From an uncultured Enterobacterales bacterium (GTDB lineage Bacteria > Pseudomonadota > Gammaproteobacteria > Enterobacterales > CALYQQ01): a stretch of 64,000 nucleotides of DNA. The notes below the pieces were generated by a model. The model was given only the letters and a program-made list of their open reading frames with translations. It was not told the origin of the DNA and made no database searches. This document shows positions 343 through 62,854 of this stretch, in pieces; position 1 is the first letter of the stretch, and every line of letters begins with the position of its first letter. The stretch spans positions 1-64,000 of the forward strand of contig CALYQQ010000007.1 of NCBI GenBank assembly GCA_945288535.1, written 5' to 3'. A program made the translations under genes and the position numbers.

Positions 343-792
343 TTAATTCCATAATTTATCATTGCTACGAGCAATAATATTATAATGTACTACTGTTTTA
401 TAAATAATTTGGCAAACATCATGTGCTAAAATAATCCACCCAACAAAAGGTACTGAACGCCCCACGAATGCGCCAAGATTATTAGTTAATCTAAATTTTA
501 AATTTGTCACAGGACCACCTACAAATGTAGGTAATATATTGAAAGGCAGGTTGTAATTAAGTAATTTTCTTGAATAAATTGAAGCAACAGAAGTTCCTCT
601 TATTGCACCTATAGGTTTTTGCCGGGTAGGAATGTTATTTCGCCCTAACAAAATACCAACAACCGCACCTACATCATCAACCCCCAATTGTTTCATTGTT
701 TCATCAACAGTGATCCAAAAAAACAATTCACCTGCAGAAAGGTTAGGCATCCCAGCATAAAAATATCCGTAGAGTTCTTCTGTTGTATCCAT
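343..792 (-). CDS. small membrane protein of an accessory gene pair
   Basis: Protein of 149 residues, starting at ATG 792 with GGA about 10 bases upstream. It resembles short proteins often labelled phage membrane protein in enterobacterial islands; I recognise the opening (MDTTEELYGYFYAG) and the NNLGAFVGRSVPFVGW block but know no function. The segment around residues 110-130 is hydrophobic and may insert in the membrane; the middle is basic and polar. It is followed four bases later by a DUF1493 gene. A decayed paralogue lies at about 61.86-62.28 kb, with similarity extending upstream of the start codon. Both copies lie downstream of a tRNA gene on the same strand. Confidence 0.7.
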   Translation of the reverse strand: MDTTEELYGYFYAGMPNLSAGELFFWITVDETMKQLGVDDVGAVVGILLGRNNIPTRQKPIGAIRGTSVASIYSRKLLNYNLPFNILPTFVGGPVTNLKFRLTNNLGAFVGRSVPFVGWIILAHDVCQIIYKTVVHYNIIARSNDKLWN

Positions 793-1090: not shown

Positions 1091-1125
1091 TAGTTTTACC
1101 CCAGTTTTACCCCAGTTTTACCCCG
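1091..1125 (-). repeat. three direct repeats GGGGTAAAACT
   Basis: Read on the minus strand, GGGGTAAAACT occurs three times in a row, about 60-95 bases past the 3' end of tRNA-Val. Short GGGGTAA-type direct repeats are familiar beside tRNA genes upstream of P4-type integrase genes, where they probably act as arm-type sites. No integrase gene remains here, so a former attachment site is inferred. Confidence 0.5.
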
Positions 1126-1184: not shown

Positions 1185-1261
1185 TGGTGCGTCCGAGTGG
1201 ACTCGAACCACCGACCCCCACCATGTCAAGGTGGTGCTCTAACCAACTGAGCTACGGACGC
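1185..1261 (-). tRNA. tRNA-Val (GAC)
   Basis: Full cloverleaf on the minus strand: acceptor GCGTCCG pairs with CGGACGC, anticodon loop TTGACAT in a CACC/GGTG stem gives anticodon GAC, the T-loop GTTCGAGTC is present and CCA is encoded. It lies near mdtK, as E. coli valV/valW do. Confidence 0.97.
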
Positions 1262-56643: not shown

Positions 56644-56731
56644 GCCCGGGTGGTGGAATCGGTAGACACAAGGGATTTAAAATCCCTCGGATGTATAATC
56701 CGTGCGAGTTCAAGTCTCGCCCCGGGCACCA
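56644..56731 (+). tRNA. leuZ: tRNA-Leu (TAA), copy 1
   Basis: Class II tRNA with long variable arm, acceptor GCCCGGG/CCCGGGC, anticodon loop TTTAAAA giving TAA, CCA encoded. 88 bases. Confidence 0.97.
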
Positions 56732-56835: not shown

Positions 56836-56923
56836 GCCCGGGTGGTGGAATCGGTAGACACAAGGGATTTAAAATCCCTCGGATGTATAATCCGTGCGAG
56901 TTCAAGTCTCGCCCCGGGCACCA
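56836..56923 (+). tRNA. tRNA-Leu (TAA), copy 2
   Basis: Identical in all 88 bases to the copy at 56644. The flanking bases differ, so only the tRNA itself is conserved between the copies. Confidence 0.97.
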
Positions 56924-58693: not shown

Positions 58694-59023
58694 CTAAATA
58701 CATTTTACCGGTTTAGGTAAACCTGCGATTTTACATGCTTGTTTAGCAGGACCTTTTGGAAAAAGGCGATATAAATAACGACTATTGCCTTTTTCTTCCC
58801 CATACTCTTTGGTTAAGGCTTTAACCAGCATACGAATGGCAGGTGAAGTATTATATTGTTGATAAAAATTACGAACGAAATTAATAACTAACCAGTGTTC
58901 TTCCGTTAAGTGTATGCCTTCTTGAATAGCAATATATTCTGCTAATGATTCGCTCCAAAGAGACATATCTTTTAGATAACCATGGTCATCTGTTTCTATA
59001 ATGTTTTGATTAAATTGTAGCAT
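58694..59023 (-). CDS. tusE: sulfurtransferase TusE
   Basis: Protein of 109 residues. TusE accepts sulfur from the TusBCD complex and hands it to MnmA for 2-thiouridine at tRNA position 34. The sulfur-carrying Cys108 is the penultimate residue (KPVKCI), and [12 protein letters not shown] with [18 protein letters not shown] is diagnostic (DsrC family). I start at ATG 59023, which gives the E. coli length; the open frame extends 29 codons further upstream. Confidence 0.96.
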
Positions 59024-60012
59024 ACGTAAACGATTATAATAGTAGCAAAAATTCGTTAAATTATAGAACAACCATTCATGAACGGATATTACATCATGAA
59101 CGCTAATCATCTATAAAAGTTATCAGGTAGCTCTAAATATATCATGTCATGGTCTATTTATAGGATGTTCTTTTTTGATCCAAATAATCAACTTTAATGA
59201 ATAACACCAAGATGAGCGGCCAATTATATTACTTTATGATTCATATTTTTTATTATACTACACTTTCTATTATTCCTAAATATGTTCTCTAAGAGAATCG
59301 ACCTATATTGATATGTAGTTAAAATAATCTTTATGGTCATTTTTCGTTCACTGTTTATAAGATAAAACGTTGTTATAATATTAATAACATAATAGTAAGC
59401 ATATTAACATGTGTACCAATTATTTTTAATGTGAAAATTATTATGTTAATTTTGATAGGATCGTGTTGATGTTGGCACTTGATATAAAAATAGAGTCATT
59501 ACACAATTACGATACCAATACTATTGATATAAAGAGAGCTTATTTATATTAAATGCTATATACCGTCTATAAATAAGCAGAAGGTGTTATTAGTATAACA
59601 CTATTTAGTTTATAGCTTTTTGCTAAATAGATAATTCTTCCTAAAAAACATACCCCATCTATGCTTATATTAAATGATTTATCTAGTTATCTTTTTCAGC
59701 AATTATCGTAATCTTTTATTCGTCCTGTTTGTCTCTTTTATTTGCTTGAAAAGAGTAAATTATAACTTATAAATAGCGTATAATATTTTTATTTAAATTA
59801 ATTACTCTATAATCATTATAATATATCATAAGGTTTATTAAATTATTTTTTATAATAATAAGGAGATTGAATAGCCGTATTATATATAGATTATTAAGCT
59901 ATAATATTGGTAAATATACACTACACTTATTTAAAACAACAAATAAATTAAGTTAATTATTTTCAATTAGTAAACTTATTTTTTACTTAATTAACGATAT
60001 AAAGGATAATAT
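59024..60012. other. about 1 kb gene-free region with tandem hairpins
   Basis: No ORF of note. Three consecutive perfect hairpins occupy 59538-59630. In E. coli yccA follows tusE; no trace of it is seen. Confidence 0.4.
59538..59630. ncRNA. three consecutive hairpins, possible structured RNA
   Basis: Hairpin 1: GCTTATTTATA/TATAAATAAGC (59538-59548 with 59568-59578). Hairpin 2: GTGTTAT/ATAACAC with loop TAGT (59584-59601). Hairpin 3: CTATTTAG/CTAAATAG (59601-59608 with 59623-59630). The series is unusual even for AT-rich sequence, but no RNA class is recognised. Confidence 0.25.
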
Positions 60013-60246
60013 ATGAGGATCTATGTTGCCTTGCTTTTATTTATTTTATTATTAAGTTATCATTCATCATGTGTTGAATCAAAAGATGTATGGACGCTTA
60101 CTGGATCATGGTCAAAATCAATAATAACAACTTATTGTTATTATAGTTTAATTGCATCGACAACCAATATGATTAAAGAAATTACGACATACCATGTCTA
60201 TAGCCTTTTTGAACATTCATGTCCATTACAACCGAATAAAAGATAA
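60013..60246 (+). CDS. small putative exported protein
   Basis: ORF of 77 residues with a good ribosome site (AAGGA) before the ATG. The first 20 residues are a plausible signal peptide (charged RIY, hydrophobic VALLLFILLLSY). The mature part would have about 55 residues with cysteines at about 42 and 70. I recognise no family. It could be a real small secreted factor or a remnant, as it lies in a decayed region. Confidence 0.45.
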   Translation: MRIYVALLLFILLLSYHSSCVESKDVWTLTGSWSKSIITTYCYYSLIASTTNMIKEITTYHVYSLFEHSCPLQPNKR

Positions 60247-61850
60247 AAATTTTATCATTAAAACTTACTTTACTATATAAAAGGTTTATTGTACTCACTT
60301 TTATTTCTGACATAATGAGCTTAATGATAAACAAACACCTATAAACAATTTATTTTTAAATATAATATGTTAAACACTATTATATCATGGATTTTAATTA
60401 AAAAATAAAGTATTAAACAAATTAAAATTTGATAATTTTTTACAATCTTATTGAAAAATTCAATTTATCATAATAAAAGAATAGTAATATTTTTAAAAAA
60501 ACATTATATCGATTCATTTTGATAGTTATTGTATTGTTAATGATGGCTCAAATGAGCTTTTTGAAGTTATAATGGTATTGTATCATGTGTTAATTGCTTT
60601 TAATGCAAAGTCTTTATGAAAAATAAGTATAAATAATTATTAATATAATAATATGTAAACTATAAATGAGTCACAAAGCAAAATTTTAACTAATGTATTT
60701 ATAAATATACACTATATAAAAGAGGTAACTAAGTTAATATATATCATATGTCTTATTAATCTAGATGTAAAAAAATGCTTATTGTTAATAAGTAATAGCA
60801 AAAATTGATCAGTAATAATTTAGGCTAGTTAGATAAATTCATAACAATCTATATAATATATAAATATGAGAAAACTTTTATAATTTTTATTATAAATTTA
60901 TCATTTATAATATCTAATTTTTAGATTACCTATGCCATTTAGTTTTCTTCACTATTCACACCATTTATTAATTAAATTATTTTGGTTATTTTGTAAATAA
61001 CTAAGAAAGGATAACACTAGTAGTATTATTAATATTTGTTTTAGGTAAGTATAATATTATAAGAATTTAATAAAATAACTATTTATAGTCTATTTTAGCT
61101 TAATAGTGTTGTACTTACTTGAGCCATTTTAATACTAATTAAATTATTTTATTATTTTTATAAAAATTTAAATCATCAACTAATGAATTATATTAATAAA
61201 ATTTTAGATTCTTTCTATTTATAATTAACAAAGAATACATAGTAATTAGTTTATTTTTAAGTGAATTTTAAAAATTAATTAGTCTAATCATAAATAAATC
61301 GTCTAGAAGATAAATATGACTACTTTGTTATTTTTTATTAATAAATAATAACAGCCATCACTATTTTTTAGAAAAAGGATATCGTTGTGAAGTCACTAGC
61401 TTTTTTCGATAACTTTTGCTCTGTTTCTAGCAGTTAATAATAAGATGATAAGTATAATGGCTGAAAGGTTTATGAATAATTACCATAAAAATTTTATTTA
61501 TAGAGGACGTACGCTTTTAATTAATAAAATAAGTAACAACACATTATTAAATCAATATAAAATAATGCGAAATATTATTATTTGTCGTTATAGTGAAAGC
61601 AATCAGAATGTTATTCTGATATATTTTCATATTAAAAATAGCGATAAATCTAATCAAGTTATTTTTTGATAGAAATGTATTTGATATCTACTAATATTTA
61701 GTTTTAATATTAGGCATGCTTTACCTCCCTTGTAAAATATAATTTTGTAGCAAATGAAGATTAATATTTATTTTAATCAATAAATTAAAATTTCATAAAA
61801 TAGTAATTTTATTGGTAGATTTAACCAGTTTTTGAAATATCATATAAAAT
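60247..61850. other. 1.6 kb region with one unsupported ORF
   Basis: Very AT-rich. A GTG with AAAAAGGA upstream at about 61387 opens a signal-peptide-like frame of 16 codons that stops at once. An ORF of 74 codons at 61445-61669 follows in another frame. They may be pieces of one broken exported-protein gene, but no family is recognised. Confidence 0.35.
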
Positions 61851-61854
61851 AATG

Positions 61855-62284
61855 GATTAGATAAAGAGTATTCTCAATATGCGCGGGACTAAACCGTTAT
61901 TTTATCTTAGGATATAGCTAAAATAACATAATCCACTATTGGAAAGGTTCTTCTGACAAGCATTCCTAGATTATTGACTAATACAATTTTTTAATGTTCT
62001 TACACGTTTTCCGATAATTGTGGGTAGTTCTCGATAAGACAGTTTGATAGGTAAAAGTTTTCTAGTATAAAGGGGTTCAATAGATGTGCTTTTGATCTTG
62101 GTGTTAACTTTATGCTTGGTAAGCAATATTTATTAATTACTTAGAATAACAAGGATAGCTTCAATGTTATTAATACCTAACTGTTTCACGATTTCATCAA
62201 CAATCATTAAAAAAATGACGGGTTTACTAAAATATTAAGTATTTCCTTATAGAAATAATCATAAACATCTTCGATTGTGTTTAT
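61855..62284 (-). pseudogene. decayed paralogue of the membrane protein at 343-792
   Basis: Minus-strand translation in pieces follows the protein at 343-792 from end to end: INTIEDVYDYFY (for MDTTEELYGYFY), a frameshift at a run of seven T, IVDEIVKQLGINNIEAI, two stops, STSIEPLYTRKLL (for GTSVASIYSRKLL), ELPTIIG, then another shift and NNLGMLVRRTFPIVDYVILA (for NNLGAFVGRSVPFVGWIILA). The start codon has become ATA. DNA similarity also extends about 100 bases upstream of the start. No DUF1493 partner is recognisable after it. Confidence 0.85.
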
Positions 62285-62766
62285 TAATAAGTAATTCATT
62301 ATTAACTATGCCTAGATAGAAGCTAAAAGAATAAAATTGAGTAATTAAGGCTAGTCTATTGACATATTTTATAAAAAAAGAAACTTAGGCGTTATATTAA
62401 TAAGAAGTTTATACGAGTTGTTAAATATATTTTATAACCAGATAAAAGAATGCGGCAAAAAGACGTTTTAAAAAATTATATTATCACCCAAATATAGCAT
62501 ATGTCGACATTCCTCTTTAAAGACGCTTATTATTCTATATAGATTTTTCTATTGTAGCAATAGAGAAAGTATGGAAGAATGTATAGCGAGTTATTATGCA
62601 TACCAACTGGAATAATGAATATTTTCCAATGCGATAAATATAGAGTACGGAGCGTTTGCAGGTTGTTTTCTTTGTGGAATAGAAAGTAAAATAGACTTAC
62701 TGTCTATGTCAACAATAACAGTATGTTCTATTTAGGGATGACAGTCGAATAATTTATTAAAATAAT
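62285..62766. other. spacer between decayed paralogue and tRNA-Ser
   Basis: About 480 bases. The part next to the pseudogene resembles the sequence upstream of 792; the rest shows no ORF. The GGGGTAAAACT repeats seen beside tRNA-Val are not present. Confidence 0.45.
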
Positions 62767-62854
62767 TGGCGGAGGAGGTGAGATTCGAACTCACGGTGGG
62801 TCACCCCACGGCGGTTTTCAAGACCGCTGCCTTCAGCCACTCGGCCACTCCTCC
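62767..62854 (-). tRNA. serT: tRNA-Ser (TGA)
   Basis: Class II tRNA on the minus strand: acceptor GGAGGAG/CTCCTCC, anticodon loop CTTGAAA giving TGA, a long variable arm (GTGGGGTGACCCAC), T-loop GTTCGAATC and encoded CCA. 88 bases. Confidence 0.97.

What the first reader, a model, noticed from the sequence alone, without database searches (positions are those of the whole stretch)
343..792. One gene family, two copies, both downstream of a tRNA gene
The protein at 343-792 (minus strand) has a decayed paralogue at 61855-62284 (minus strand). The intact copy lies about 390 bases after the 3' end of tRNA-Val, the decayed copy about 480 bases after the 3' end of tRNA-Ser. DNA similarity continues upstream of the start codon in both. 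Two different tRNAs with the same gene in the same orientation and distance point to a mobile element family that targets tRNA 3' ends and carries this gene.
Basis: partly seen in the sequence, partly recalled or inferred. Interest (0 to 1): 0.72.

Follow-up and report, generated by a model that had tools for sequence, protein, structure and literature searches.

The report
Mobile toxin-and-immunity pair, probably T6SS-delivered

Summary
343-792 (minus) encodes an STM2901-family protein (NF045926) and has a decayed paralogue at about 61855-62299. Both lie just past a tRNA 3' end, and the homology runs upstream of the start codon.

The tRNA reading holds only in part. The shared upstream block ends before either tRNA. 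A third copy (contig C13) has the same block with no tRNA within about 8 kb. In 79 relatives, 75 have no tRNA in the DNA held (5 kb each side for most). The other four repeat the geometry exactly, and one (Yersinia aldovae) is flanked by an 82-bp repeat containing the tRNA 3' end. So tRNA sites are an occasional route of spread.

The working unit is a pair: STM2901 plus a DUF1493 gene directly downstream (6-362; 79/79 relatives). It adjoins an hcp/tssD gene in 30 of 79 loci, with hcp nearby in six more. All 12 genomes carrying it have TssB (43% background). The toxin-like gene is broken or lost while DUF1493 stays 16 times; the reverse was never seen. DUF1493 is predicted to fold like an acyl carrier protein without the active serine.

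Best reading: an undescribed Hcp-linked T6SS effector-immunity family carried as prophage, plasmid or island cargo.

The parts
343..792 (-). STM2901-family gene, 149 aa, intact; proposed T6SS effector
   Evidence: NF045926 190.6 bits against a cut-off of 110; phrog_21993 1e-46; intact paralogues in C13 and C1
6..362 (-). DUF1493 gene (start ATG at 362 or 338), directly downstream of and overlapping or abutting the STM2901 gene; proposed immunity gene. The contig ends right after it
   Evidence: PF07377 70.7 bits against a cut-off of 21; window base 1 is the contig end
793..990 (-). Upstream block shared with the C13 copy (about 198 bp); its first 127 bp (793-919) also shared with the decayed copy; probably the cassette's own promoter region
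   Evidence: blastn, 75.8% over 657 columns reaching 198 bp upstream; 72% to the decayed copy
1092..1124 (.). Perfect 11-bp repeat AGTTTTACCCC x3 just after tRNA-Val; possible integrase arm sites (inference)
   Evidence: Tandem Repeats Finder, 100% matches
1185..1261 (-). tRNA-Val(gac)
   Evidence: ARAGORN
61855..62299 (-). Decayed STM2901-family copy: start codon lost, several in-frame stops; no recognisable DUF1493 partner left
   Evidence: DUF1493 tblastn best E 0.12
62300..62411 (-). Upstream block of the decayed copy, homologous to the block upstream of the intact copy
62767..62854 (-). tRNA-Ser(tga)
   Evidence: ARAGORN

Best explanation
The gene is the first half of a two-gene effector-immunity cassette. 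STM2901 is a small (about 150 aa, 17 kDa) antibacterial effector loaded in the Hcp tube of a type VI secretion system and injected into neighbouring cells; its conserved C-terminal hydrophobic helix suggests action on membranes. DUF1493, made from the next gene, is its cognate immunity protein and protects the producer and its kin. The cassette has no mobility genes of its own. It spreads as cargo: at the variable gene slots of P2-like prophages, on plasmids, beside orphan hcp genes or in T6SS clusters, and sometimes within elements at tRNA 3' ends. Shown here: the pair, its family membership, its linkage to hcp and to T6SS, the host's T6SS, the asymmetric loss, the phage and tRNA settings. 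Inferred: toxicity, neutralisation, secretion, membrane target.
For: DUF1493 directly follows STM2901 in 79/79 genome loci and 78/80 viral loci. hcp/tssD is adjacent in 30/79 loci from well over a dozen genera; in 6 more it lies about 3 kb upstream, and in one of these read in full (Y. frederiksenii, L037=L109) the order is tssD-clpV-STM2901-DUF1493-vgrG; in the independent draw of 16 chromosomal loci hcp is adjacent in 9. All 12 STM2901-bearing genomes of 395 have TssB, against 170/395 overall (Fisher p 3e-5, not corrected for phylogeny). The window's genome has TssB, TssC, Hcp, ClpV, TssM and TssK in one cluster. STM2901 broken with DUF1493 intact 13 times, DUF1493 alone 3 times, intact STM2901 with a broken or missing DUF1493 0 times; strong solitary DUF1493 in 4 places of the order survey, two beside hcp or an hcp fragment, against no solitary STM2901. 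The partner diverges faster (median identity 31% against 49%) and the two co-vary (r 0.76). Tandem arrays with decayed copies (L078, L097, L104, L119, L120).
Against: None of this genome's copies has an hcp beside it (C13 and C1 checked; the C7 copy runs into the contig end). The genome's single Hcp is only remotely related to the linked tssD (E 3e-5). 43/79 genome loci and 77/80 viral loci show no hcp in the DNA held. STM2901 has no detectable fold match, so no activity can be read from it, and the hydrophobic helix is marginal as a membrane segment (KD19 maximum 1.38 for the window copy, family median 1.65). No toxicity data found in the literature held.
Confidence: 0.66

Rival explanations
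1. Anti-phage or superinfection-exclusion system: a two-gene module carried by prophages and defence islands, with STM2901 as a membrane effector and DUF1493 as its regulator or antitoxin.
For: The C1 copy sits in the cos-proximal gpA-gpQ gap of a P2-like prophage, a known hotspot of anti-phage systems (PMC9122126); 17 of 131 proteins next to viral copies are gpQ-type portals; C13 lies next to type I RM genes, a Serratia plasmid copy next to Shedu.
Against: No PADLOC model matches either protein; defence genes are rare among neighbours: a handful in 131 viral and 140 chromosomal neighbour proteins; linkage to hcp and T6SS is far commoner, and 14/14 genomes have TssB, which this reading does not predict.
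Confidence: 0.17
2. Plain type II toxin-antitoxin or addiction module that stabilises plasmids and prophages, with no secretion.
For: Two-gene operon, partner kept when the toxin-like gene is lost; found on 156 plasmid records and in prophages.
Against: Does not explain the recurrent position beside hcp and between clpV and vgrG, nor TssB in every host; the second gene is not a DNA-binding antitoxin but ACP-like.
Confidence: 0.1
3. One reading: a mobile element family that targets tRNA 3' ends and carries this gene as its own cargo.
For: 6 copies with the same tRNA geometry (2 in this window, 4 of 79 relatives) and an 82-bp tRNA 3'-end repeat around the pair in Y. aldovae.
Against: No integrase and no second tRNA 3' end for the copies in this genome; 75/79 relatives without a tRNA in the DNA held; upstream homology stops short of the tRNA. 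Accounts for the address of some copies, not for the pair or its function.
Confidence: 0.07

Closest known systems
Ssp6-Sip6 family (Serratia marcescens T6SS pore-forming effector and immunity; PMC6889166)
   Same: Small effector outside the main T6SS cluster or next to orphan hcp or inside a T6SS cluster, patchy within species, small downstream overlapping immunity gene, widespread in Enterobacteria
   Different: Sip6 is encoded by a 204-bp frame and has two transmembrane helices; DUF1493 is about 108 aa with an ACP-like predicted fold. Sequence homology of STM2901 to Ssp6 was not tested (no Ssp6 sequence at hand)
Hcp-bound small effectors of P. aeruginosa such as Tse4, 19.2 kDa with predicted transmembrane segments (PMC8262886)
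   Same: Size suited to the Hcp lumen, hydrophobic segment
   Different: Not shown to be related in sequence; here hcp is often in the same gene cluster
Vibrio cholerae Aux3 (PMC7721734)
   Same: T6SS effector cargo on a prophage-like element with att sites
   Different: Aux3 moves by its own site-specific recombination; this cassette carries no recombinase
P2-like gpA-gpQ hotspot cargo such as old/tin (PMC9122126)
   Same: The C1 copy occupies that slot
   Different: Known occupants are anti-phage systems
NCBIfam NF045926 (STM2901 family) and Pfam PF07377 (DUF1493)
   Same: Both proteins belong to these families by score
   Different: Both are of unknown function; the papers found under these names mention them only in passing

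Membership tests
STM2901 family (NF045926) | Score above curated cut-off (110 bits) | tested here: met
   190.6 bits
DUF1493 (PF07377) | Score above curated cut-off (21 bits) | tested here: met
   70.7 bits
T6SS effector-immunity pair | Linkage to hcp, vgrG or the T6SS cluster | tested here: met
   At family level 30/79 adjacent to hcp and 6 more with hcp about 3 kb away; not seen for the copies in this genome
T6SS effector-immunity pair | Host encodes a T6SS | tested here: met
   Window genome: cluster on C3; 14/14 carriers have TssB
T6SS effector-immunity pair | Immunity gene adjacent and retained when the effector is lost | tested here: met
   79/79 adjacency; 13 broken and 3 absent against 0 in the other direction
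T6SS effector-immunity pair | Toxicity, neutralisation by the partner, T6SS-dependent export | not testable with these tools
   needs bench work
Ssp6 family | Sequence homology to Ssp6 | not tested
   no Ssp6 sequence in the collections used
Ssp6 family | Immunity protein a very short protein with two transmembrane helices | tested here: not met
   DUF1493 about 108 aa, ACP-like model, no such helices
Acyl carrier protein | Fold | tested here: met
   VIA Z 9.2, rmsd 2.2, 71 aligned; nearly every row an ACP; the profile's PDB hits down to E 1.7 are all ACPs. Helical folds can score high, so fold only
Acyl carrier protein | Phosphopantetheine serine (DSL) at the start of helix II | tested here: not met
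   Ser in 0-6% of sequences at the candidate columns; the window protein reads V-Q-D-E there
tRNA-targeting integrative element | Integrase in or beside the unit | tested here: not met
   none between the tRNAs and the gene, nor in the Y. aldovae unit
tRNA-targeting integrative element | Duplicated tRNA 3' end | tested here: inconclusive
   absent in this assembly, but the contig ends at base 1; present in Y. aldovae
Known anti-phage defence system | Match to a PADLOC model | tested here: not met
   none

The most novel reading that the evidence does not exclude
DUF1493 is a pseudo-acyl-carrier protein that neutralises STM2901 by mimicking ACP, which would make ACP or an ACP-dependent membrane-lipid enzyme the target of a previously unknown kind of T6SS toxin.
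Probability: 0.12. Interest if true: 0.78.

Novelty: new member of a known kind. Interest (0 to 1): 0.52.

Why it matters
Two families of unknown function, spread over Enterobacterales chromosomes, 156 plasmid records, P2-like prophages and 405 of 5426 complete E. coli genomes (counting partial DUF1493 matches), get one testable role. If right, prophages and plasmids carry T6SS ammunition and shields as cargo, and an acyl-carrier-protein fold has been reused as an immunity protein. It also explains why the same small gene turns up beside tRNAs, phage cos sites and hcp genes.

Tried and rejected
Single-protein scans of genome contigs and viral contigs found nothing; the alignment scan worked. 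Genus and family searches hold only this genome. A weak STM2901 match on C2 (E 0.08) near another tRNA-Ser was taken as chance. STM2901 fold and sequence searches of the PDB gave no usable match. Hcp-STM2901 fusion: not seen; overlapping frames in L049 are separate genes. A 275-284 aa neighbour in Tatumella with an RNase A toxin domain was tested as an STM2901 fusion and rejected. Rfam search round the C13 copy gave nothing. The E. coli copy between icd and rluE has no mobility genes in the region shown.

Full report
Observation. The window is the first 64 kb of contig C7 (139,639 bp) of a 2.52-Mb genome in 29 contigs; base 1 is the contig end. 343-792(-) encodes 149 aa and belongs to the STM2901 family (NF045926, 190.6 bits, cut-off 110). 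It starts 392 bp after the 3' end of tRNA-Val. A decayed relative lies at about 61855-62299(-), starting about 480 bp after the 3' end of tRNA-Ser. It is significant at protein level (E 6e-11) and at DNA level (3e-19), far above Markov resampling. It has lost its start codon, has stops in frame, and has no recognisable DUF1493 partner.

The unit. Directly downstream of the intact gene lies a DUF1493 gene (PF07377, 70.7 bits). The genome has two more intact STM2901-DUF1493 pairs: C13:85192, beside type I restriction-modification genes, and C1:192101, beside a P2-type portal gene. The 202 bp before the C1 copy match many phages (154 records at a permissive E-value limit; the best at 5e-9); in Erwinia phage ENT90, a peduovirus, the match lies between replication gene A and the portal gene. 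That gap is a known cargo hotspot of P2-like phages (PMC9122126).

The tRNA question. Homology between the two window copies covers about 125 bp upstream of the start and then ends; the remaining stretch up to each tRNA is unrelated. The C13 copy shares about 195 bp of the same upstream block but has no tRNA within 10 kb upstream or 7.6 kb downstream. The block is therefore most simply the cassette's own promoter region. The tRNA-Val 3' end is not repeated in the assembly, and the tRNA-Ser 3' end recurs only in a second complete tRNA-Ser gene. In 79 relatives from named genomes, only four have a tRNA in the locus. But all four tRNAs (Gly-CCC twice, Pro-GGG twice) lie 268-576 bp upstream on the same strand. 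If tRNAs fell anywhere in the flanks on either strand, each would have about a 3% chance of that placement (rough estimate made after seeing the pattern), so it is unlikely to be chance. In Yersinia aldovae (L107) an 82-bp exact repeat containing the tRNA-Pro 3' end flanks just the pair (period 1475 bp); the flanks inside the unit also carry short repeats. Tyrosine-integrase-type insertion at tRNA 3' ends is thus one way the cassette reaches a site, but not what defines it. The perfect 3 x 11-bp repeat after tRNA-Val may be integrase arm sites of a lost element (inference).

T6SS link. hcp/tssD lies directly next to the pair in 30 of 79 loci. In six more, tssD lies about 3 kb upstream; in the one read in full (L037, the same place as L109, Yersinia frederiksenii) the gene order is tssD-clpV-STM2901-DUF1493-vgrG. 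In the independent draw of 395 genomes of the order, hcp is adjacent at 9 of 16 chromosomal loci (L038, L039, L040, L041, L044, L046, L047, L048, L049). Two of the plasmid loci read also have tssD next to the pair. With a few hcp genes per 4.5-Mb genome, chance adjacency would be well under 1% (estimate). Every one of the 12 STM2901-bearing genomes has TssB against 170 of 395 (Fisher p 3e-5; relatedness not corrected, and most carriers are from one family). The window's own genome has a T6SS cluster with TssB, TssC, Hcp, ClpV, TssM and TssK.

Effector and immunity. Among paired or solitary genes in the 159 loci, 148 pairs are intact in both genes. STM2901 is broken and DUF1493 intact 13 times (a few of these are close relatives of each other), both are broken 3 times, DUF1493 stands alone 3 times, and an intact STM2901 with a broken or missing partner was never seen. 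The loci were picked by the STM2901 N-terminus, which if anything favours finding intact STM2901. In the order survey four strong DUF1493 matches have no STM2901, two of them beside hcp or an hcp fragment, and no STM2901 lacks DUF1493. The partner evolves faster (median identity 31% against 49%) and in step (r 0.76; shared ancestry contributes). Arrays with decayed copies occur (L078, L097, L104, L119, L120), and in Tatumella an RNase A-type toxin gene stands beside such an array. These are the usual marks of a toxin and its immunity gene.

Structures. DUF1493 is predicted with pLDDT 85.8. Its matches are acyl carrier proteins almost without exception (Z up to 9.2, rmsd 2.2, 71 residues), and its sequence profile finds only ACPs in the PDB, each weakly (best E 0.05). 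The serine that carries phosphopantetheine is missing. STM2901 is predicted less well (pLDDT 79, pTM 0.62), with a near-invariant N-terminus (MDT-x-EEL-x-GTYFY) and a long hydrophobic C-terminal helix (106-140); it resembles nothing solved.

Phage and plasmid cargo. In viral contigs the nearest neighbours are mostly gpQ portals (17 proteins) and tail-fibre assembly genes (about 11); phage EtG has the pair between tail sheath and tail-fibre assembly. 156 plasmid records carry STM2901. In E. coli 405 of 5426 genomes have a match to the pair, 360 of them over most of it; in the two looked at it stands between icd and rluE without mobility genes. Known defence genes are rare neighbours.

Verdict. 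An Hcp-linked T6SS effector-immunity family carried as mobile cargo fits linkage, co-occurrence and asymmetric loss together; the defence and addiction readings each explain only part. Toxicity, neutralisation and export remain to be shown. The main weakness is that no copy in this genome has a visible hcp beside it and most phage copies have none. No paper found in the library describes the pair in this role.

Noticed in passing
window 59110-62300: About 3.2 kb of very AT-rich DNA with no credible gene between a small intact gene (58694-59110) and tRNA-Ser; the decayed STM2901 copy lies at its end, so it may be a decayed island.
   Followed up: partly
L007 9640-9790 (contig C13, before the third copy): Two GC-rich hairpin-like stretches (CATCCCCGCATACGTGGGAG, TTACCCCTGCGTACGCGGGGAATA) that look by eye like worn type I-E CRISPR repeats, next to type I restriction-modification genes; not tested.
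   Followed up: no
L107 4548-6105: Yersinia aldovae: 82-bp direct repeat with the tRNA-Pro 3' end around a 1475-bp unit holding only the pair; short sequence repeats inside look by eye like remnants of a tail-fibre assembly gene.
   Followed up: partly
L119 6117-6971, L120 5964-6791: Tatumella: 275-284 aa protein with a C-terminal CdiA-type RNase A toxin domain beside arrays of the pair.
   Followed up: partly
L056 5117-6111: E. coli AR_0128: hcp and DUF1493 gene fragments next to a His-Xaa-Ser (hxsABCD) cluster.
   Followed up: no
L244-L249, L257: Weak, divergent DUF1493 matches without STM2901 or hcp in the DNA held (1-1.5 kb each side); may be a wider family of ACP-like proteins.
   Followed up: no
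window 56644-56731 and 56836-56923: Two tRNA-Leu(taa) genes 105 bp apart.
   Followed up: no
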